A stretch of DNA of 64,000 nucleotides. Source: Arthrobacter sp. ok362 (GTDB lineage Bacteria; Actinomycetota; Actinomycetes; Actinomycetales; Micrococcaceae). The stretch's first letter is position 1, and each line of letters opens with the position of its first letter. The stretch spans positions 124,001 through 188,000 of the forward strand of contig NZ_FNGC01000002.1 in the NCBI RefSeq assembly GCF_900102785.1. The letters are read 5' to 3'. Position numbers and translations under genes: made by a program. The notes beneath the pieces are model-generated. The model did no database searches, was not told the origin of the DNA, and was given only the letters and a program-made list of their open reading frames with translations. Shown in pieces: positions 40,538 through 51,872 of this stretch.

Positions 40538-42127
40538 TTACTCCACGGTCACCATGACTGACTGCCAGCCGGAGGCGCCGTCCGGGACCGGATCCGCCCG
40601 CTTGTCCGTCTGGACCTCGCCGGTGCCATCCGTGGCGCGGACCTTGAGGTAGTGCGGGCCCGGCGTGGCATCCCAGTCGAGGGACCACTGCCGCCAGGTG
40701 ATGAGGGATGCCTCGTCGGAGAGCACCGCCTCGGTCCAGGGGCCGCTGTCGATCTGCACCTCGACCTTGGTGATCCCGCGGGTCTGGGCCCACGCGGTAC
40801 CGCCGATTGCGACCTTTCCGGCGGGGACCTTGGCGAAGGACTTGGGCACCTCCACGCGCGCCATGGTCTTGATCGGGCCGCGTTCGGACCATCCACGCTG
40901 GGTCCAGTACGCCTTGCTGTCGGCGAACCGGGTCACCTCGAGATCCACTACCCACTTCGTGGCGGAGACGAAGCCGTACAGCCCGGGAACCACCATCCGC
41001 ACCGGGTAGCCGTGTTCGAGCGGGAGGGCCTCGCCGTTCATGCCGATCGCCAGCATGGCGTCGCGGTCGTCCTGGAGGACCTCCAGCGGCGTGGAGGCGC
41101 TGAAGCCGTCAATCGAGGTGGAAAGCACCATGTCCGCGCCCTGCTTGGGGCGGGCCAGCTTCAGGACGTCGCGGATGGGCATGCCCAGCCATTTGGCGTT
41201 GCCGGCCAGGTTGCCGCCGACCGGGTTGGACACACAGGTCAGGGACACATGGGATTCGATGAGCTGGGCGTCGAGGAGGTCCTGGAAGGTGAGCCGGACC
41301 TCCTGTTCCACCAGGCCGTGGATGCGCAGTTCCCAGTCCTGGGCGTTGATCTCCGGCACACTGAGGGCCGTGTCGACCCGGTAAAAGTCCTTGTTCGGGG
41401 TCAGCCACGGCGTGACGCCAGGCGCCTTGGACTGGACACCGGCCGGGACCGCGGCGGCGGCCTTGGCGGGTGCGGGCAGCTGCAGCGATTCGCGGGCCGC
41501 GGCCACGTTGCTGCGGGCTGCGCTCAGCAGGCGCCCGCCGGTGGCGGCCACCGCCGAGGCGGCCGCGGTGATCCCCGCGGCGGCGAAGAACGCGCGCCGC
41601 GTGGTCGCCGGGCGGTCCGGTTCCTTCGCGGCGACGTCGGCCGCCCGGTCCGGCCATTCCTGCATCCGCCACAGCCGGATGATCAGGAGCCGGAGCACCA
41701 CCAGCCCTGCCACGGTGCCGATCAGGGAAGGAATGGCATCCACCGGCTTGACGCTGGCCCGGGTCACCACACTGCCGACGATCACGGCGCCCATCAGCAC
41801 CACACCGGCCACACCCAGGGCCCACTTCCGGTACGCCGCGATGCCGAGCACGCACGCGAGCAGCAGGATCGTGACAGCCATCCCGACGAACAGCGCGGCC
41901 TTGTCGTTGGTGCCGAACGTTTCGACGGCGAAGTTCTTCATCCACAGCGGCGTGAAGTCGATGAACGTCGATCCCAGCGCAATCAGGGGCGTCGCCCGTG
42001 TGGTGAAGAACGCCCCGATCAGTTCCGCGACGGACAGGACGACGGCGGCGGCGGCCACCCCGGCCACCGCGGCCAGGGCTGTGGCGCCGCGGGACCGCTG
42101 GCTGGGCTTCATGCTGGGCTTGTTCAT
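40538..42127 (-). CDS. Membrane-anchored sulfite-oxidase-like molybdopterin oxidoreductase
   Basis: 529 aa. Residues about 15-160 hold four membrane segments. A twin-arginine signal-like TTRRAFFAAAGITAAASAVAA lies at 175-195, so the catalytic domain is probably exported. From about 235 comes the molybdopterin fold: WELRIHGLVEQEV and SLTCVSNPVGGNLAGNAKW with the molybdenum-ligand Cys298. From about 430 comes the Ig-like dimerisation domain (VAIGGTAWAQTRGITKVEVQIDSGPW). The substrate could be sulfite or a related oxyanion. Start choice among ATG codons at 42136, 42127 and 42112 is uncertain because no good ribosome site is seen. Confidence 0.88.
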   Translation of the reverse strand: MNKPSMKPSQRSRGATALAAVAGVAAAAVVLSVAELIGAFFTTRATPLIALGSTFIDFTPLWMKNFAVETFGTNDKAALFVGMAVTILLLACVLGIAAYRKWALGVAGVVLMGAVIVGSVVTRASVKPVDAIPSLIGTVAGLVVLRLLIIRLWRMQEWPDRAADVAAKEPDRPATTRRAFFAAAGITAAASAVAATGGRLLSAARSNVAAARESLQLPAPAKAAAAVPAGVQSKAPGVTPWLTPNKDFYRVDTALSVPEINAQDWELRIHGLVEQEVRLTFQDLLDAQLIESHVSLTCVSNPVGGNLAGNAKWLGMPIRDVLKLARPKQGADMVLSTSIDGFSASTPLEVLQDDRDAMLAIGMNGEALPLEHGYPVRMVVPGLYGFVSATKWVVDLEVTRFADSKAYWTQRGWSERGPIKTMARVEVPKSFAKVPAGKVAIGGTAWAQTRGITKVEVQIDSGPWTEAVLSDEASLITWRQWSLDWDATPGPHYLKVRATDGTGEVQTDKRADPVPDGASGWQSVMVTVE

Positions 42128-42171
42128 ACAGGCCATTCGTAGCCGCGCGGCCGGCGGATTGTCTGGCGAGT

Positions 42172-42377
42172 GGACATGCTCACTGGCCCTCGGGGGACAT
42201 GCCCAGCCCCGGGAGCCAAGCATGGACATGCTCGCGGACCCCAAGGGGACATGCCCAGCCCTGGGACCCAGGGATGGACATGGTGGCATTGTGTCCAGTG
42301 GCCGAGGCCGGGCCTGGGCATGTCCCGCGGTTTCCCCGGCGCCCGGGCGTGCCTCGCCGCGAAGATTGAGCATGTCC
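42172..42377. repeat. Decamer array A, GGRCATGYYC family
   Basis: GGACATGCTC at 42172, GGACATGCCC at 42195, GGACATGCTC at 42224 and GGACATGCCC at 42247. Then comes a 21-bp imperfect hairpin from GGACAT (42276) to TGTCC (42296), followed by GGGCATGTCC at 42316 and GAGCATGTCC at 42368. The hairpin follows the preceding decamer by 19 bp and precedes the next by 19 bp, exactly as in arrays B and C. It fills most of the 304-bp divergent gap between the molybdoenzyme gene and purD. Confidence 0.9.
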
Positions 42378-42431
42378 AGCGGCCGACACAGCTTAGGAGC
42401 CTGCGGGGTGCACCACGTACCCTTGGAGACT

Positions 42432-43742
42432 GTGAAGGTACTTGTCATCGGCCCCGGCGGCCGCGAACACGCCATTGTCCGATCCTTGCTTGCAGACCCC
42501 AACGTTTCCGAGGTCCACGCGGCCCCGGGCAATGCCGGCATCAGCGCGCTGGTCCCCACATATGCGATCGACGCGAACGATCCCGACGCCGTCGCCGCGC
42601 TGGCCCTCAAACTCACCGTAGACCTGGTGGTGGTCGGCCCGGAGGCGCCCCTCGCCGCCGGTGTGTCCGACGCCGTCCGGACCGCCGGCATCCCCGTCTT
42701 CGGCCCCGGCAAGGCCGCGGCCCAGCTGGAGGCGTCCAAGGCCTTCGCCAAGGAAGTCATGGCCGAGGCCGGCGTCCCCACCGCCATGGCCCGGGTGGCC
42801 GGCACCGCCGAGGAAGCCGCCGACGCGCTCGACACCTTCGGCGCCCCCTACGTCGTCAAGGACGACGGGCTCGCCGCAGGCAAGGGCGTCGTCGTCACCA
42901 ACAACCGGGACGAGGCCCTCGCACACGCCCAGAGCTGCTTCGACGCCGGCGGCACGGTCGTGATCGAGGAGTTCCTCGACGGGCCCGAGGTTTCCGTGTT
43001 CGTCCTCTGCGACGGCAGCAACACCGTGGCCCTGTCCCCGGCGCAGGACTTCAAACGCATCTTCGACAACGACGAAGGCCCCAACACCGGCGGCATGGGC
43101 GCCTACACACCGCTGGAATGGGCCCCCGAAGGCCTCGTCCAGGAAGTGATCGACCGCGTCGCCCAGCCCACGGTCAACCAGATGGCCCACCGCGGCACCC
43201 CGTTCGTCGGTGTCCTCTTCGTCGGCCTCGCCCTGACCTCGCGCGGCACGCGGGTCATCGAATTCAACGTCCGGTTTGGCGATCCGGAAACCCAGGCCGT
43301 CCTCGCCCGGCTCAAGACGCCCCTCGGCGGGCTGCTCATGGCCGCCGCCAAGGGCGAACTGGACAAGGTGCAGCCGCTGCGCTGGTCCAAGGACACGGCG
43401 GTCGCCGTCGTCGTCGCCGCAGAGAACTACCCCGGCACCCCGCGCACCGGCGACCGCATCCGCGGCCTGAAGAAGGTCGACGCTTTGGACGGCGTCCACG
43501 TGATCCACGCCGGTACCAAGCTCGACGGCGCCGGCAAGGTCGTGTCCGCCGGCGGCCGCGTCCTGGCCGTTGTGGCGCTGGGCACGGACCTCGTGGAGGC
43601 CCGGGAGCGGGCGTACGACGGCGTCGAGCTCGTCCAGCTGGACGGCAGCCAGTTCCGCACCGACATCGGCGGCAAGGCCGCCCGCGGGCAAATCCGCGTA
43701 GCGGCGCCGGGAACCCCGGCCGCGTCGAAAGCGAAGGCGTGA
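42432..43742 (+). CDS. purD: Phosphoribosylamine-glycine ligase
   Basis: 436 aa ATP-grasp enzyme. VLVIGPGGREHAI opens it, VVGPEAPLAAGVSD follows, ATP-grasp PYVVKDDGLAAGKGV is near 136-150, and EEFLDGPEVSV and EFNVRFGDPETQAVL give the Mg/ATP contacts. It makes glycinamide ribonucleotide from phosphoribosylamine and glycine, purine step 2. The start is GTG at 42432 with GGAG 5 bases before. purC starts 2 bp after the stop. The gene is separated from the divergent molybdoenzyme by array A. Confidence 0.97.
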   Translation: MKVLVIGPGGREHAIVRSLLADPNVSEVHAAPGNAGISALVPTYAIDANDPDAVAALALKLTVDLVVVGPEAPLAAGVSDAVRTAGIPVFGPGKAAAQLEASKAFAKEVMAEAGVPTAMARVAGTAEEAADALDTFGAPYVVKDDGLAAGKGVVVTNNRDEALAHAQSCFDAGGTVVIEEFLDGPEVSVFVLCDGSNTVALSPAQDFKRIFDNDEGPNTGGMGAYTPLEWAPEGLVQEVIDRVAQPTVNQMAHRGTPFVGVLFVGLALTSRGTRVIEFNVRFGDPETQAVLARLKTPLGGLLMAAAKGELDKVQPLRWSKDTAVAVVVAAENYPGTPRTGDRIRGLKKVDALDGVHVIHAGTKLDGAGKVVSAGGRVLAVVALGTDLVEARERAYDGVELVQLDGSQFRTDIGGKAARGQIRVAAPGTPAASKAKA

Positions 43743-43744
43743 AC

Positions 43745-44716
43745 GTGACAGAACCCGCGGCCCGGACGCCCGACACCACGCCCGAGACCACGCCCAAGGG
43801 CGGACTGGACACCGCCACGCTGGACCTGCCCGGCTGGCGGCACGTCTACTCCGGCAAAGTCCGCGACCTCTACGTCCCCGCGGACCCGGCCTTCACCGAA
43901 CGCTTCGGCCAGGACTGCGTCCTGGTGGTGGCCAGCGACCGCATCAGCGCCTACGACCACGTCCTGGCCAGCGAGATTCCGGACAAGGGCCGCATCCTGA
44001 CCCAGTTGAGCCTGTGGTGGTTCGAACAGCTCGGCGTCGCCCACCACGTCCTCGCGTCCACGGCCGACGACGGTGTTCCCGCCGCCGTCGAGGGCCGGGC
44101 AATGATCTGCAAGAAACTGGACATGTTCCCGGTCGAATGCATCGCGCGCGGCTACCTCACCGGCTCGGGGCTTCTGGAGTACCGCGCGTCGGGCACGGTG
44201 TGCAGCATCCCGCTGCCCACCGGCCTCGTTGACGGATCGCGGCTGCAGGAAGCCATCTTCACGCCCTCGGCGAAGGCCGAAGTGGGCGAGCACGACGAGA
44301 ACATCACCTACGACGCCGTCGTGGGCCTCGTGGGTGCAGACGTCGCGGCGGAGCTGAGCCGGCTGACCCTGGAGATCTACACCAAGGCCGAGGAAATCGC
44401 GCGCGGCCGTGGCATCATCCTGGCCGACACCAAGGTGGAGTTCGGCCTCGACGCTTCCACCGGCCTCATCACCCTGGGTGATGAGGTGCTGACCCCCGAT
44501 TCGTCACGCTTCTGGGATGCGGCCACGTACCAGCCCGGGCAGGCCCAGCCGTCCTACGACAAGCAGTACGTGCGCGACTGGCTGACCTCGTCCGAATCGG
44601 GCTGGGACAAGGCCTCCGACACGCCCCCGCCCGTTCTTCCGGCCGACGTCGTGGCGCGCACGCGCAGCCGCTATGTGGAGGCCTACGAGAAGCTCACCGG
44701 CCGGACGTTCGCCTAG
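43745..44716 (+). CDS. purC: Phosphoribosylaminoimidazole-succinocarboxamide synthase
   Basis: 323 aa. WRHVYSGKVRDLYVP, VVASDRISAYDHVLASEIPDKGRILTQLS, PVECIARGYLTGSGL and GIILADTKVEFGLD are SAICAR synthase signatures in the correct order. It joins aspartate to carboxyaminoimidazole ribotide in purine synthesis. A 30-residue Thr/Pro-rich head precedes the domain. The start is GTG at 43745, coupled to purD across 2 bp. It is convergent with the HTH-TPR regulator, 15 bp away. Confidence 0.97.
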   Translation: MTEPAARTPDTTPETTPKGGLDTATLDLPGWRHVYSGKVRDLYVPADPAFTERFGQDCVLVVASDRISAYDHVLASEIPDKGRILTQLSLWWFEQLGVAHHVLASTADDGVPAAVEGRAMICKKLDMFPVECIARGYLTGSGLLEYRASGTVCSIPLPTGLVDGSRLQEAIFTPSAKAEVGEHDENITYDAVVGLVGADVAAELSRLTLEIYTKAEEIARGRGIILADTKVEFGLDASTGLITLGDEVLTPDSSRFWDAATYQPGQAQPSYDKQYVRDWLTSSESGWDKASDTPPPVLPADVVARTRSRYVEAYEKLTGRTFA

Positions 44717-44731: not shown

Positions 44732-45997
44732 CTAGGCTTCCGCGGAAGCAGCCTCGGCCCGCCGCTGGGCCAGCTTGATCTCGAGCACGGCGTCCAAGGC
44801 CTGCTGGACCCGGTCCGAGGCGCCCGCCGCGCTGAACTCCTTCTGGGCTTCCTCGAGGTACACCAGGGCCTCCGCGGACTCCCCGGCAGCTTTGAGGGCC
44901 TTGCCCAGCAGCAGGGAGACCTCGCCTGCCGTGTGCCGGGCCAGCGCCTCCCGCTCGGCGTGGATCTCGCGCAGCTTCTGGACGGCGGCCACGATGTCTC
45001 CGGTGAGGTAAAGCCAGCGGGCCCGGATGAAGGCCACTTCCAGCTGGTCCGTCTTGTTGCCGCCGACGATCGAGAGGGCCAGCTCGGCGCGTTCGATCGA
45101 TGACAGGGTTTCGGGTTCGACGATCCCCGAGGAGAGGCGGACGGCGGCCGAGGCCTTGTTGAACCGGGCCCACAGGTCGATGTCATTGGCCGGGGACAGC
45201 AGGCGGCCCGCCCGCTCGTGGTATTTGATTCCCTCGGGGTAGTCGTGGCGCATGAAGGCCACGTTGCCGATCACCCAGGCCACTTCGCCGGCGAGCTGGG
45301 ACATCGAGTGGTCGTCCATCTGGTCGTTCATGGCCTGGCAGTACTCCCAGGCCTCATCCAGGCGGCCGCTCTCGGCCAGGGCGCCGATGAGGGCGCGGAG
45401 GGCGCCGATGATCATGGTGGAGCCCTTGGGCAGCTCTGCGCAGAGCCGGACCGCTTCCTGCGCATGCTCGACGGCGGCGGCGAGCTGGCCCTGGCCCTGC
45501 GAGGCGGCGGCGAGCATCTGTTCGGCCCGGACGCCGAGTCCGGCCGATTCCGCGGCCATCGGGTGCTCCAGGAGATTCTGGACCACGTCCTTGCACTCCT
45601 GCCAGAGGCCCTGCTTGATCAGGCATTCGGCCTGCATGTAGGTCATGTTCCACCAGGCGCTGGTGTTCTTGGCCTCAAGGGCGATCCTGGCGGCGGTGGC
45701 GGCGTGGGTGGCGGCCACGGGATAGTCCCGGAGGTCCCAGGCCTGCCGGGCATACAGCCCGGCGAGCACGTATTCGGCGTCGCTGACGGACACCGGCTGG
45801 CTCCAGGCCTCGAGTGCCTTGGGGGCCAGTTCGAGCCGGTGGGCAAGCTCTTCGATGACATCGGCCGTCGGCTCGCGGCGTCCGGTTTCCAGCAAAGAGA
45901 TGTAACTGGGGGAGTACAGGTCGCGGCCCAGCTCCGCCTGCGTCAGGCCCCGTTCGAGCCGTTCCGCGCGGAGCTTCTCCCCAAATCCGTTCCCCAC
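44732..45997 (-). CDS. XRE helix-turn-helix regulator with TPR domain, RRNPP-like
   Basis: 421 aa. Residues about 6-63 are an XRE/Cro HTH (LRAERLERGLTQAELGRDLY, SPSYISLLETGRREPTADVI). The remaining 350 residues are all-helical with repeated TPR-like pairs, for example SAWWNMTYMQAECLIKQGLW, AEQMLAAASQGQGQLAAAVE and GEVSLLLGKALKAAGESAEA. This HTH-plus-TPR layout and length is that of peptide-sensing RRNPP regulators (PlcR, NprR, Rgg); similar actinobacterial proteins also exist without known peptides. The start is GTG at 45997 with AGGAGG at 5 bases. It is divergent, across 130 bp, from the repeat-peptide gene. Confidence 0.88.
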   Translation of the reverse strand: MGNGFGEKLRAERLERGLTQAELGRDLYSPSYISLLETGRREPTADVIEELAHRLELAPKALEAWSQPVSVSDAEYVLAGLYARQAWDLRDYPVAATHAATAARIALEAKNTSAWWNMTYMQAECLIKQGLWQECKDVVQNLLEHPMAAESAGLGVRAEQMLAAASQGQGQLAAAVEHAQEAVRLCAELPKGSTMIIGALRALIGALAESGRLDEAWEYCQAMNDQMDDHSMSQLAGEVAWVIGNVAFMRHDYPEGIKYHERAGRLLSPANDIDLWARFNKASAAVRLSSGIVEPETLSSIERAELALSIVGGNKTDQLEVAFIRARWLYLTGDIVAAVQKLREIHAEREALARHTAGEVSLLLGKALKAAGESAEALVYLEEAQKEFSAAGASDRVQQALDAVLEIKLAQRRAEAASAEA

Positions 45998-46036
45998 GGA
46001 TACCTCCTAATTCCGGACATTCTTTGTACTAAATGC

Positions 46037-46076
46037 TTGACAGTCTCTGTAGAAACCATTTTACAATGTGTGTCAA
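46037..46076. promoter_or_regulatory. Overlapping divergent promoters with inverted TTGACA boxes
   Basis: Plus strand: TTGACA (46037-46042), 19 bp, TACAAT (46062-46067), then the peptide gene. Minus strand: TTGACA (46076-46071), 19 bp, TACAGA (46051-46046), then the regulator gene. The two promoters are near mirror images over the same 40 bp, and ACAG TCT CTGT (46040-46050) is a further small dyad. One bound protein could control both directions. Confidence 0.6.
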
Positions 46077-46127
46077 CAAGGGTAGTGCTGACTTGGTTAA
46101 GGACCCCAACCCATATTGAGGAACTCT

Positions 46128-46346
46128 ATGTTGAAGAAGATTGCAGCCGGCGCCGTTTTGGCGGGCGCACTGGCATTCTCCGCCGCGGCCCCGGCCGTGC
46201 TGTCCGCTGCTTCACTTACCGATGTCTCCAACGTTGCCGCCGTCGGCAACTGGCCCGACCCCATGCGCGCCGCCCAGGCGGTGGGCAACTGGCCCGACCC
46301 CATGACCCACTCGCTGAACGTCGGCAACTGGCCCGACCCGATGTAA
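46128..46346 (+). CDS. Secreted repeat-peptide precursor (three VGNWPDPM copies)
   Basis: 72 aa. MLKKIAAGAVLAGALAFSAAAPAVLSA is a clear Sec signal peptide (basic head, hydrophobic core, Ala-x-Ala-like end near residue 28). The remainder carries VGNWPDPM at residues 39-46, 52-59 and 65-72, at an exact 13-residue period; the third copy is the C terminus. The linkers RAAQA and THSLN differ, so only the octapeptide is conserved. This is the layout of a precursor that releases several copies of one short signal. ATG at 46128 follows GAGGA; a TTG four codons earlier is less likely. The divergent HTH-TPR protein is the obvious candidate receptor. No known family recognised. Confidence 0.85.
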   Translation: MLKKIAAGAVLAGALAFSAAAPAVLSAASLTDVSNVAAVGNWPDPMRAAQAVGNWPDPMTHSLNVGNWPDPM

Positions 46347-46354
46347 CAGGTCCG

Positions 46355-46394
46355 ACGCAACAGCCCCGGGAGATTTCTCCCGGGGCTGTTGCGT
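46355..46394 (+). terminator. Strong hairpin after the repeat-peptide gene
   Basis: A perfect 19-bp inverted repeat (arm starts ACGCAACAGCCCCGGGAGA) with a 2-base centre, 9 bp after the stop codon. No T-run follows, but the stem is long and GC-rich. It isolates the peptide gene as a single-gene transcript. Confidence 0.8.
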
Positions 46395-46716: not shown

Positions 46717-48705
46717 TCAGACCAGCGAGTCTTTCCAGGCGCCGTGGAGCCGGGCGAAGGCACCGCCGTCGCCGATCAGCTGCGCCGGGGTGCCGTCTTC
46801 GACGACGCGTCCGTCGTGCACCACCAGGACCCGGTCTGCCGTCTCCACGGTGGAGAGTCGGTGGGCAATGATCAGCGCTGTCCGCCCGGCTGCGGGGGCA
46901 GCGTCCGGGCCGGAGGCCGCGTCTGCGGCGGGCAGCCCGCCGGCCGCGTCCCGGGTGCCGCCCTCCCGCGTCCCGGTCTCGCGGGTGCCGGTCTCGCGGG
47001 TGCCGGTCTCGCGGGTGCCGGTCTCGCGCGTGCCGGTCTCGCGGGTGCCGGTCTCGCGCGTGCCGCGCAGGAGCCCCGCGAGGCCCTGCTGGACCATGCG
47101 CTCCGACGGGATGTCCAGCGAGGACGTTGCCTCGTCCAGGATCAGGACGGCCGGGCGGGCCAGGAAGGCCCGGGCGAAGCTGATCAACTGGCGCTGTCCG
47201 GCGGAGACGCGGCCGCCGCGCTTGTTGACGTCGGTGTCGTAGCCGTCCGGAAGTTCCATGATGAAGGCGTGCGCCCCCACTGCCCGTGCCGCATCCTCGA
47301 TCTCCTCGCGCGAGGCCTCGGGCCGGCCCAGCGCGATGTTGTCCGCCACGGAACCGCTGAACAGGAAGGCCTCCTGGGTGACCATGACAACGTTCCGGCG
47401 CAGGTCCTCGGTGGTGAGCTGGCGCAAGTCCACGCCGTCGAGAGTCAGGGACCCGGCGGAGACGTCGTAGAAGCGGGCGATCAGCTTCGCGAGGGTGGAC
47501 TTGCCGGCGCCGGTCTGCCCGACCAGCGCGACCGTCTGGCCGGCGGGGATGTGCAGGTCCAGCCGCGGAATGACGACCGGGCCGTCGCCGTAACGGAATT
47601 CGACGCCGTTGAAGTCGATGCTGCCCTGCGCGTGGGGCAGGGCAGCGGGTGTCTTCGGCGGCCGCACGGTGGGGATCTCCTCGAGCAGGCCCGAGACCTT
47701 TTCCAGGGCAGCCTGGGCGCTTTGGAAGGAGTTATAGAACATCGCCATCTGGTCCACCGGCTGGAAGAAACGCTTGGTGGACAGGATCAGGGCCAGGAGT
47801 ACGCCGACCTCGAGGCCGCCGCTGAGGACCCGGAAACCGCCCGTGAGCAGCACGAGGGCCACGCACACGTTCCCGATCAGGACCAGCCCGGGCTGGAAGA
47901 TGCCGTTGAGGTTGATGGAGCGGACGGTCGCGCGCCGGTAGTCCTCCGACAGTTCGGCGTAGCGCGCGGCATTTTCGCGTTCCTTCCGGAACGCCTTCAC
48001 GGCCCGGATGCCGGTCATGGTCTCCACGAAGTGCACGATCAGCCGGGCCGAGACCACCCGGGATTCGCGGAAGGCGATCTGTGAGTGCTTCTGGTACCAG
48101 CGGGCCAGGAAATACATCGGCACACCCGCGGCCAGCACCAGCACCCCGGTGCGCCAGTCCAGGGCGAACACCGTCACGGCCGTAAACGCCATGAACAGCA
48201 TTCCCGAGGCCAGCGAGCTCACGCCGGAATCCAGCAGTTCGCGCAGGGCCTCCAGATCCGAGGTCTGCCGGGCGATGATGCGGCCGGAGGTGTATTTCTC
48301 ATGGAATTCCAGGCTCAGCCGCTGCGTGTGGCGGAAGACCCGGACGCGGAGGTCCAGCAGCATCGCCTGGCTGAGCCGCGCCGTCCAGGTCACGTACAGG
48401 GCCGTCAGGCCGGCCGCCACGACGGCCGCGGCAAGGTAGGCGACGCCGGCGAACACCAGGGGAAGGCTGTCGCCGGCGCGCACGGCCGGCAGGGCGTGGT
48501 CGATCCCGAAGGCTATCAGCGCCGGCCCGGCCACGCGGGCGGCCTGGGACAGGACGACGGCGCCGATCGTCAGCCAGAAACGGGCCCGGACGGGGCGGAT
48601 CAGGGACCCCAGAAGGGTCAGGGAGCGCCGCCGGACGGCCTTGCTCTCGTTCCTGCTGAGGTGCGCGTTGTCCTCATTGGCGGTGCCGAACGATGCGCTG
48701 CTCAT
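46717..48705 (-). CDS. ABC exporter half-transporter with a repeat-expanded ATPase domain
   Basis: 662 aa. The N-terminal 330 residues hold six membrane segments; the C-terminal ATPase has Walker [10 protein letters not shown], signature [12 protein letters not shown], Walker [14 protein letters not shown] with catalytic Glu, and H-loop [10 protein letters not shown]. Between the D-loop and the H-loop lies a low-complexity insert with GTRET six times plus two degenerate copies (about residues 547-580), followed by an Ala/Gly/Pro stretch. It pairs with the next gene as a heterodimeric exporter of unknown substrate. The ATG overlaps the stop of the partner (ATGA). Confidence 0.92.
46966..47065 (-). 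repeat. 15-bp tandem repeat inside the ABC exporter gene
   Basis: The coding-strand unit GGCACCCGCGAGACC (GTRET) is repeated six times with one or two changed bases, flanked by partial copies. A 15-bp unit keeps the frame, so copy-number change would only lengthen or shorten the loop. Such repeats often vary between strains. Confidence 0.9.
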
Positions 48706-50525: not shown

Positions 50526-50695
50526 GCCTGCTTCTTAAGACGCCCGTGCATAGATAGCACCGTTGAATGTAGTTTCCTGTAGCAACTACCCTAGGTCATC
50601 GGGTGACCGGATTCACACGTTGTCCAGCGCTTCCAGCATCTCGCCCAGTCATTACGATCCGCAATGGGTCCCGCGTGGCGGGGCGGGTGCCCGCG

Positions 50696-50881
50696 GGACA
50701 TGTCCAGTCTTGGCGCCGACCCTCGGAGGACATGTCCAGTCTTCGCCGCGGCGGATGGGCATTGTGGGTCTATGCCCAACGCTCGCGGCCTGCGGAGGGC
50801 ATGTCCCGTGGGCGGGGGCGTGAGGGGAGGGCATGTCCACCCTTGAGGCCGCGGGCGGGGGCACGAGGGGAGGGCATGTCC
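50696..50881. repeat. Decamer array B, GGRCATGYYC family
   Basis: GGACATGTCC at 50696 and 50728, a 21-bp imperfect hairpin from GGGCAT (50757) to ATGCCC (50777), then GGGCATGTCC at 50797, 50829 and 50872. The hairpin lies 19 bp after the preceding decamer and 19 bp before the next, as in A and C. The array occupies the 399-bp gap between the exporter and metallophosphatase genes, which otherwise holds no gene. Confidence 0.9.
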
Positions 50882-50924
50882 ACCCGTCAGGCCGGAGGGC
50901 GGGCAAGCTTGGATGCGGGCAGGG

Positions 50925-51872
50925 CTAGGCGCGGGAGGTCAGCGTGAGCAGGACGGCTTCGGGCCGGCAGGCGATGCGGACCGGAGCGAAGCGGGAGGTG
51001 CCGATGCCCCCCGAGACGTTCACCGGCGTCGTACTGCCGTTGCTTTCCCAGGCGTGCAGGCCCCGGGCCCGCCAAGAGGGAAGGTCACAGTTGGTGACAA
51101 GTGCCCCGTATCCCGGGACGCAGATCTGTCCGCCGTGGGTGTGGCCGGCCAGGAGGAGGTCGGCGCCGGCTTCGGTGAAGTGGTCGAGGACGCGCTGGTA
51201 GGGAGCGTGCGCCACGGCGATGCGAACATGCGGGTCGGCGTCCCGGCCCTTGGTGCCGCGCGGCCAGCCCGCGTACCGTTCGAGGCGCAGGTGGGGATCG
51301 TCGACGCCGGAGAAATCGAAGCGCATGCCCTTCAGCACCAGGGACTGGCACCGGTTGGTCAGTTCCACCCAGCCTGACATGCCGAACTCGGACCTCAGCC
51401 GGGGCCAGTCGAGTTTCTCCGGTTCTGGGCGCTGGGCCGAGGGGCCGCGCAAATATGAGGCGGGGTTCCTGAAGCTCGGGCCGAAGTAGTCGTTCGAGCC
51501 GGGGACAAACACGCCGGGGAATTCCAGTAGGGGACGCAGGGCCGCCACGAGAGGGTCAACGCCCTTGGCATGGCTGAGGTTATCGCCCGTATTCACCACG
51601 AGGTCGGGCCTCAACTCCGCCAGGGACGACAGCCACCGGGCCTTCCGGTGCTGGCCCGGCACGAAGTGGATGTCGGAGAGGTGCAGGATCCGGAACGGGC
51701 CGAACCCGGCCGGCAGGATGGGAAGAGTCTCCTCCCTGAGCACGAACTGGTTCTTCTCCCACAGCCCGTACCCGGCGGCGGCCGCCCCTGCCGCCGTCCC
51801 GATCGCGGCGGTCACGGCAAAGCCGCGTCCGATGCTTCGAACGCGGCTTGCCAGATGGTTCGCCCAGGTCAT
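50925..51872 (-). CDS. Membrane-anchored metallophosphoesterase
   Basis: 315 aa calcineurin-like phosphoesterase. An N-terminal hydrophobic segment (about 17-37) could anchor it. Metal-site motifs run in order: HLSDIHFVPGQ near 68-78, VVNTGDNLSH near 93, VPGSNDYFGP (GNHD variant, Ser for His position), VAHAPY near 221 and LLAGHTHGGQICVPG near 239. The substrate is unknown; related YkuE-like proteins act on lipid-linked or nucleotide substrates. Gene end 3 bp after the PBP stop region suggests linkage with the PBP gene upstream (gap 3 bp). Confidence 0.88.
   Translation of the reverse strand: MTWANHLASRVRSIGRGFAVTAAIGTAAGAAAAGYGLWEKNQFVLREETLPILPAGFGPFRILHLSDIHFVPGQHRKARWLSSLAELRPDLVVNTGDNLSHAKGVDPLVAALRPLLEFPGVFVPGSNDYFGPSFRNPASYLRGPSAQRPEPEKLDWPRLRSEFGMSGWVELTNRCQSLVLKGMRFDFSGVDDPHLRLERYAGWPRGTKGRDADPHVRIAVAHAPYQRVLDHFTEAGADLLLAGHTHGGQICVPGYGALVTNCDLPSWRARGLHAWESNGSTTPVNVSGGIGTSRFAPVRIACRPEAVLLTLTSRA

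What the first reader, a model, noticed from the sequence alone, without database searches (positions are those of the whole stretch)
44732..46346. Candidate peptide quorum-sensing pair: HTH-TPR receptor divergent from a three-copy VGNWPDPM precursor
Seen: a 72-aa protein with a signal peptide and VGNWPDPM three times at an exact 13-residue period, ending at the last copy; the DNA copies are almost identical while the linkers differ. Divergent across 130 bp is a 421-aa XRE regulator whose C-terminal 350 residues look like TPRs. Known: RRNPP receptors (PlcR, NprR, Rgg, PrgX) have this architecture and sit next to their secreted signal genes. Multi-copy precursors occur in fungal pheromones and some bacterial signals but are unusual in RRNPP systems. 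Inference: the octapeptide or a trimmed form is exported, processed and read by the regulator. I know of no described system with this sequence.
Basis: partly seen in the sequence, partly recalled or inferred. Interest (0 to 1): 0.93.

Follow-up and report, generated by a model that had tools for sequence, protein, structure and literature searches.

The report
Actinobacterial "WP" peptide pheromone system
A soil bacterium of the Arthrobacter group carries, back to back, a small predicted-secreted protein that contains the same eight-residue peptide three times and a predicted DNA-binding regulator that would read it; the pair is present in all eighty named relatives examined and likely is a peptide language of a bacterial phylum for which the papers found describe other kinds of signal.

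Summary
In detail: 72-aa precursor (46128-46346 +) with VGNWPDPM three times at a 13-residue period, 130 bp from a divergent 421-aa HTH-TPR regulator (44732-45997 -). All 80 named orthologue loci, picked by the regulator alone, carry a divergent precursor with 1-4 copies; 77 end exactly on a copy. Within precursors the copies differ at 54% of synonymous but 2% of nonsynonymous sites; linkers at 63% and 58%. Selection is therefore on the peptide. Regulator relatives in Micrococcaceae often (34 of 60 loci) keep a W-P peptide beside them with other letters: GIWPNS, GNWPDAV, GDWPH, GWWPN, GSWPF. Many sit at the same purC locus, so the signal changes while the gene stays. One receptor clade lacks the DNA-binding domain, like Rap, and has mostly single-copy peptides. 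Streptomyces relatives have DIGWP/DIEWP/DISWP repeats. The intergenic region holds a conserved TTGACA...TTTACAATG...TGTCAA element. Best reading: an actinobacterial peptide quorum-sensing family that works like RRNPP systems (PlcR-PapR, NprR-NprX) but with its own W-P signal; RRNPP membership unproven. Export, processing, import, binding and regulated genes are inferred.

The parts
46128..46346 (+). 72-aa precursor gene: signal-peptide-like N-terminus, then three copies of VGNWPDPM, ending on the third
   Evidence: export signal judged by a simple hydropathy screen, passed by 77 of 80 named orthologues, not by a signal-peptide program
46242..46265 (+). VGNWPDPM copy 1
46281..46304 (+). VGNWPDPM copy 2
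46320..46343 (+). VGNWPDPM copy 3, C-terminal
44732..45997 (-). 421-aa HTH-TPR regulator, the proposed receptor
   Evidence: HTH; model; PlcR, NprR, Rap among the matches, together with many other TPR proteins
46037..46076 (.). conserved element TTGACA...CCATTTTACAATG...TGTCAA between the two genes: proposed operator and overlapping promoters
   Evidence: alignment of 80 loci; other lineages; one such place in the window's genome at up to 3 mismatches
46355..46394 (+). 18-bp hairpin after the precursor stop, likely terminator
   Evidence: -42.5 kcal/mol, z -8.3; a perfect stem of 10 bp or more follows the precursor in only 32 of 80 named loci
43745..44716 (+). purC (SAICAR synthetase), the neighbour that anchors the receptor locus in many relatives; not part of the system

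Best explanation
VGNWPDPM (or a trimmed form of it) is most likely a peptide pheromone: the 72-residue precursor, which carries three copies of it, is predicted to be exported and cut outside the cell, and the divergently encoded 421-residue HTH-TPR protein would bind the re-imported peptide and switch the shared promoter. Shown from sequence: the two genes lie back to back and are conserved together; the copies, not the linkers, are under purifying selection; the intergenic region holds a conserved symmetric element; related receptors in Micrococcaceae, and a few elsewhere in the class including Streptomyces, keep a neighbouring small protein with one or more W-P peptides whose other letters change from lineage to lineage, often while the receptor stays at the same purC locus. 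Inferred: Sec-type export, proteolytic release, uptake by an oligopeptide ABC importer, binding in the inner groove of the TPR superhelix, a cell-density role, and the genes controlled. The element was found once in the window's genome, which suggests that the HTH form mainly controls its own divergent pair. Whether the peptide activates or relieves repression is not known. The receptors without the HTH domain would act on a protein partner, as Rap proteins do.
For:: 80 of 80 named orthologue loci (the best 80 of 130 found with the receptor as the only query) have the divergent precursor; 77 of 80 precursors end on a copy. (copies counted loosely, at least 4 of 8 letters): 225 copies, 208 exactly [IV]GNWPDPM, 7 degenerate; copies within a precursor pS 0.536, pN 0.024; 13-residue-period linkers within a precursor pS 0.633, pN 0.585; the same contrast in a thinned set of 40 precursors (copies pN 0.012, linkers pN 0.569); receptor homologues in 88 of 197 family genomes; the [VI]GNWPD codon pattern in 39 of 197, of which 34 have a copy beside a receptor; all 31 with two or more matches are receptor-positive; the 109 receptor-negative genomes give 5 single matches; of 60 divergent receptor loci, 28 have a signal-peptide-like W-P ORF divergently upstream, against 0, 0 and 2 in the three other positions and 0 in reversed sequence (80 named loci: 77 against 1, 0, 0); a looser reading by eye adds 6 of the 60; receptors at the purC locus with GNWPDPM, GNWPDP[STAF], GIWPNS, GNWPDAV, GNWPDAS, GNWPNV, WIWPD, GDWPH, GEWPH and GDWPHA[AD]; 8 of the 9 invariant W/N/R/H residues of 17 receptors (37-66% identity to the query) lie on first helices of the predicted TPR pairs: R84, W116, W241, N245, W276, N280, R287, W328; one conserved Asn anchors the peptide main chain in Rap receptors (PMC11343458, passages); conserved intergenic element; 7 SBP_bac_5 (oligopeptide-binding type) genes in the genome.
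Against: No expression, secretion, binding or phenotype data. No RRNPP-specific profile among the matches; the best structural rows by VIA-align are eukaryotic LGN, above NprR and Rap, so the fold alone does not show peptide binding. The ninth invariant polar residue, H260, is on a second helix. 26 of 60 divergent receptor loci show no W-P ORF even by the looser reading, among them 9 of 10 loci of genus g24 and 11 loci of further receptors in genera g7, g19 and g31. Outside the family only 6 of 13 loci with a near-full-length receptor match have a W-P small ORF that I accept by eye, two of these with a single C-terminal W-P (L218 ending DTWPA, L234 ending LNWPKCC). Degenerate copies exist (GNWADQL in 6 of 80 precursors; also in L126 and L132). 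Leaderless ORFs ending in GNWPDP[MLV] exist away from any seen receptor, which a simple one-pair model does not explain. The operator-like 12-mer is not found within two mismatches in the ten g7 loci L124-L133. The loci are related, so the counts are not independent.
Confidence: 0.8

Rival explanations
1. The small protein is a secreted effector (for example an antimicrobial or surface peptide made in several copies), and the HTH-TPR protein is only its local transcription regulator, sensing something else; the peptide is not the ligand.
For: Divergent regulator-target pairs are common (general knowledge). Orphan GNWPDP ORFs lie beside unrelated genes.
Against: W-P peptides also sit beside receptors without a recognisable DNA-binding domain, which are hard to see as local regulators (Pfam checked for L002 and L188 only). 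Peptide letters change along with receptor lineages while the W-P core stays. Most invariant polar and aromatic residues lie on the predicted inner TPR helices.
Confidence: 0.12
2. The precursor is a multi-core RiPP-like precursor: the octapeptide is enzymatically modified before export, and the neighbouring ABC proteins carry it.
For: Multi-core precursors exist (general knowledge). A pair of ABC exporter-type genes lies across the tRNA gene in the window, and a match to the first is in 79 of 80 named loci.
Against: The gene next door on the other side is ordinary purC; I recognised no maturation enzyme among the nearby ORFs (only three neighbours were searched with profiles). The first ABC gene is detected in only 20 of 100 other loci within the fetched flanks. 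The N-terminus is signal-peptide-like.
Confidence: 0.05
3. A cell-internal regulatory loop: precursor fragments, also from leaderless GNWPDP ORFs, act on the receptor inside the producing cell and report secretion or cell-envelope state rather than density.
For: Leaderless ORFs ending in GNWPD, GDWPD or GNWPDP[MLV], one in the window's own genome beside flotillin- and NfeD-like ORFs (these two names by eye, recalled).
Against: 77 of 80 named receptor-linked precursors pass the export-signal screen, and extra copies per precursor fit a released signal.
Confidence: 0.15

Closest known systems
PlcR-PapR and NprR-NprX (RRNPP, Bacillus cereus group)
   Different: Other phylum; the PDB profile search aligns PlcR only over the HTH; signal built on a W-P core; genes divergent; precursor with up to 4 copies in the named orthologues and up to about 8 in relatives.
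Rap-Phr, including phage Rap-Phr with duplicated pheromones (PMC11343458, abstract and passages)
   Same: TPR receptor; tandem pheromone copies in one propeptide; the HTH-less clade found here has Rap-like architecture (TPR only).
   Different: The window's receptor has an HTH; the HTH-less receptors here form one clade within the HTH-TPR family (support 100/99); targets unknown.
Rgg-SHP (streptococci)
   Same: Divergently transcribed peptide and HTH regulator sharing a promoter region (divergence recalled).
   Different: No duplicated pheromones were found in Rgg propeptides, and their export uses another route (PMC9765709 and PMC12700828, passages); no Rgg-type C-terminal domain was matched here.
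gamma-butyrolactone and other described actinobacterial signalling
   Same: Cell-cell signalling of the same phylum; the papers seen name butyrolactones, other small molecules, and cyclic or modified peptides (PMC10075063 and PMC4748050, passages).
   Different: Here the proposed signal is a linear, genetically encoded peptide with a cytoplasmic TPR receptor.

Membership tests
RRNPP(A) quorum-sensing systems | cytoplasmic receptor with 5-9 TPRs, usually after an N-terminal HTH | tested here: met
   HTH by Pfam; about eight helix pairs after it in a model of pLDDT 90; PlcR, NprR and Rap among the structural matches
RRNPP(A) quorum-sensing systems | small propeptide gene with export signal adjacent to the receptor gene | tested here: met
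   80 of 80 named orthologues have the gene, 77 of 80 pass the hydropathy screen; no signal-peptide program was available
RRNPP(A) quorum-sensing systems | sequence descent from the RRNPP receptors (family-specific C-terminal profile) | tested here: inconclusive
   no RRNPP-specific Pfam or NCBIfam profile among the matches at E up to 10; PDB profile search aligns PlcR and ComR only over the HTH
RRNPP(A) quorum-sensing systems | mature peptide bound in the TPR groove | not testable with these tools
   no complex prediction or binding assay; indirect: invariant N245, N280, R84 and W residues on predicted inner helices
RRNPP(A) quorum-sensing systems | re-import by an oligopeptide permease | tested here: inconclusive
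   7 SBP_bac_5 genes in the genome, a very common family; none linked to this system
multi-core RiPP | maturation enzyme encoded with the precursor | tested here: inconclusive
   neighbours profiled are purC and two ABC transporters; other nearby ORFs were only read

The most novel reading that the evidence does not exclude
Actinobacteria have their own peptide language: a family of exported W-P signal peptides, often repeated in one precursor, each read by a dedicated TPR receptor, with lineage-specific letters around a fixed W-P core (GNWPDPM, GIWPNS, GDWPH, GWWPN, GSWPF, GGSWPT, DIGWP), spread from Arthrobacter to Streptomyces, and including a Rap-like clade of receptors without DNA binding.
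Probability: 0.7. Interest if true: 0.93.

Novelty: new variant of a known kind. Interest (0 to 1): 0.86.

Why it matters
The RRNPP surveys and reviews looked at treat these systems as a Firmicutes/Bacillota matter, and describe actinobacterial signalling as small molecules or cyclic or modified peptides (passages in PMC10075063, PMC9765709, PMC4748050, PMC4873490). A family of predicted peptide-receptor pairs in common soil actinobacteria and in Streptomyces would add a new signal class to a phylum that makes many of our antibiotics. The peptides are short and synthesisable, so the idea can be tested with ordinary chemistry in harmless strains, and the diversified pairs give a ready set for studying how receptors and signals change specificity together.

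Tried and rejected
Chance repeat: rejected by conservation and by the synonymous/nonsynonymous contrast. Phage or plasmid origin: the receptor has no match in 50,697 phage records and only HTH-level matches (14% of the query) in 7 Streptomyces plasmids. Pfam, NCBIfam and PHROGs give no family for the precursor (one sub-threshold Pfam match, E 0.17). Regulon by operator: one site in the genome at up to 3 mismatches, so no further target was found. The sigma-70 scan found no promoter in the conserved element (TTGACA to TACAAT is 19 bp apart). VIA-align lists eukaryotic LGN first, so I do not use the fold as proof of peptide binding. The consensus terminator scan did not list the 18-bp hairpin, which has no T-run.

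Errors of mine: L139:2864-3250:- was the wrong strand and not that precursor, so those two results say nothing about it and one protein search was wasted; the purC query was out of frame and was redone, whose numbers are used; the copy counts took only copies of the form xGxWPDPx, which fixes five letters in advance, so recounted with a loose rule and its numbers are used in the argument (the first rule had given pN 0.006 for copies within a precursor); three distant receptors (L217, L218, L234) gave no frame and were left out of the tree, L184 was left ungrouped by its length though it falls inside the HTH-less clade, and L190 was labelled as without peptide though the screen counts an ORF ending NDWPISYPR beside it.

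Paper searches behind the statement that I found no description of this system: ('NWPDPM': 0 papers), all in the held open-licence library, no preprints.

Full report
OBSERVATION. The precursor (46128-46346, +, 72 aa) has a lysine-rich start, a hydrophobic stretch, then VGNWPDPM three times at a 13-residue period, ending on the third. The regulator (44732-45997, -, 421 aa) starts 130 bp away in the opposite direction. Pfam finds HTH_31 and HTH_3; TPR models are below their cut-offs, but a confident AlphaFold2 model (pLDDT 90.2, pTM 0.73, 10-row alignment) shows helix pairs behind the HTH.

CONSERVATION OF THE PAIR. The receptor alone was used to fetch the best 80 of 130 named loci (Arthrobacter, Pseudarthrobacter, Paenarthrobacter). 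All 80 have a divergent precursor: 4 with one copy of the form xGxWPDPx, 33 with two, 24 with three, 19 with four, 218 in all; 77 of 80 end on such a copy. Codons for the fixed residues are scrambled (for example CCC, CCG, CCT and CCA for each proline). That form fixes five letters in advance, so recounted every 8-mer with at least 4 matching letters: 225 copies, of which 208 are exactly [IV]GNWPDPM (136 I, 72 V), 10 are variants at the first, third or last place, and 7 are degenerate (GNWADQL in 6 precursors, IGGMLAPM in one). Copies within a precursor: pS 0.536, pN 0.024 (239 pairs); 13-period linkers within a precursor: pS 0.633, pN 0.585 (46 pairs). In a thinned set of 40 precursors: copies pS 0.571, pN 0.012; linkers pS 0.559, pN 0.569.

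CO-OCCURRENCE. In 197 family genomes the receptor (E up to 1e-20) is in 88, from 17 of 32 genera. The codon pattern for [VI]GNWPD is in 39 of 197. All 31 genomes with two or more matches are receptor-positive and have a copy beside a receptor; 3 of the 8 single matches lie 150-370 bp upstream of a receptor; the other 5 are in receptor-negative genomes. Thus 34 of 39 have a copy beside a receptor. The other 54 receptor-positive genomes carry other peptide letters or none seen.

A FAMILY OF SIGNALS. I fetched 60 more divergent receptor loci chosen only by the receptor. A strict automatic screen (signal-peptide-like ORF with a repeated or C-terminal W-P) finds one divergently upstream in 28 of 60, against 0, 0 and 2 in the three other positions and 0 in reversed sequence; for the 80 named loci 77 against 1, 0 and 0. 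A looser reading by eye adds L164, L166, L176, L187, L191 and L194, giving 34 of 60; 26 show none. Signals seen: GNWPDPM; GNWPDP[STAF]; GIWPNS x2; GNWPDAV x4-5; GNWPDAS-type x6; GNWPNV-type x4; WIWPD x2; GDWPH-type x6-8; GEWPH x2; GDWPN x3; GNWPD x4; GNWPDR x5-8; GWWPN, GWWPH, GWWPK, mostly single; GSWPF, GYWPF; NNWPY, NNWPG; GIWPY, GLWPY; GNWPH, GNWPY; and short leaderless ORFs ending in VGNWPD or VGDWPD. purC (SAICAR synthetase) is beside the receptor in 79 of 80 named loci (the exception, L060, is a shorter locus at a contig end) and in 48 of 100 other loci examined, including carriers of GIWPNS, GNWPDAV, GNWPNV, WIWPD, GDWPH and GEWPH. At one genomic place the receptor is kept while the signal's letters change.

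RECEPTORS WITHOUT HTH. The window's genome has a second receptor (L002, 40% identity) without an HTH, beside a 49-aa protein ending SAMEWWPNSTKK. In a 71-row tree the 18 receptors classed as HTH-less by length form one clade together with L184 (support 100/99); Pfam confirmed the lack of an HTH for the two tested, L002 and L188. Most have one peptide copy; L170, L175 and L192 have 3, 4 and 2.

BEYOND THE FAMILY. At E up to 1e-15, 22 of 297 order, 22 of 394 class and 6 of 296 phylum genomes match (these samples overlap, include family members, and the tool scored only 4-6 candidates a genome). Of 13 loci outside the family with near-full-length matches, I accept a W-P small ORF beside 6 by eye: L217 GGSWPT x3, L218 ending DTWPA, L234 ending LNWPKCC, and L232 DIGWP x2, L235 DIEWP x2, L238 DISWP x3; L236 has an ORF ending GEIEWP that I did not count; the other six show none. 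A profile of the last three precursors found 15 proteins, three of them the queries themselves; 13 carry a source name, each time Streptomyces, and they have 2-4 copies of DI[GES]WP behind a hydrophobic leader. L238's precursor is identical to one of Streptomyces vilmorinianum.

CONTROL REGION AND LIGAND SITE. The intergenic DNA of the 80 loci holds an almost invariant block, TTGACA...CATTTTACAATG...TGTCAACA; the 12-mer CATTTTACAATG is exact in 76 of 80 and within one mismatch in 80 of 80; forms within two mismatches occur in L113-L123, L134-L143 and L150-L153, but not in the g7 loci L124-L133 nor in the other relatives. It occurs once in the window's genome at up to three mismatches. Seventeen receptors with and without HTH share nine invariant W, N, R or H residues; by the helix list eight of them (R84, W116, W241, N245, W276, N280, R287, W328) lie on the first helices of TPR pairs, which usually line the groove (general knowledge), and H260 on a second helix. 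In Rap receptors a conserved Asn anchors the peptide main chain (PMC11343458, passages). Foldseek's best bacterial match is PlcR with PapR7 and DNA. These support a peptide groove but do not prove it.

WHAT IS KNOWN. RRNPP(A) surveys build on Firmicutes proteins (PMC9765709, PMC10075063; passages); multi-copy propeptides are described in the first and in PMC11343458 (abstract and passages). For Actinobacteria the review seen names butyrolactones, cyclic or modified peptides, and LuxR or TPR domain hits, and in the passages shown no such pair (PMC4748050). Nine searches of the held papers gave no description of this pair in their listings (list in Tried and rejected); subscription papers and preprints are not covered.

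VERDICT. A real, conserved peptide-receptor pair, most likely a pheromone system working like RRNPP systems; family membership unproven; signal family new as far as searched. Export, processing, import, binding and target genes remain inferred.

Noticed in passing
L258 (own genome G000:C26 about 11.6 kb), L259, L251-L254, L256, L260: Short ORFs without a leader that end in or near GNWPDP[MLV], away from any seen receptor: in the window's genome beside flotillin- and NfeD-like ORFs (names by eye); in L251, L252 and L260 after a proline- or serine-rich exported-looking protein (L251 has four copies). Possibly extra pheromone genes or an internal ligand.
   Followed up: partly
L145, L147, L154, L155, L157, L160-L162, L178 (genus g24); L146, L148, L149, L156, L158, L159, L163, L167, L199 (genus g7, further receptors): Receptor relatives with no W-P peptide found nearby: possible eavesdroppers or receptors with other ligands.
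   Followed up: partly
L200 (similar ORFs by eye near L177, L182, L184, L188): A small DUF7793 / SpoIIAA-like ORF lies downstream of several HTH-less receptors (Pfam for the L200 copy only); it might be their partner.
   Followed up: no
window 46960-47070: The ABC transporter ORF 46717-48705 carries an in-frame run of six TRETG repeats near its C-terminus.
   Followed up: no
window 42120-42460 and 50590-50950; L002 2460-2910: Intergenic stretches that look rich in short interspersed repeats around ACATGTCC (seen by eye in ORF translations), in several places of this genome.
   Followed up: no
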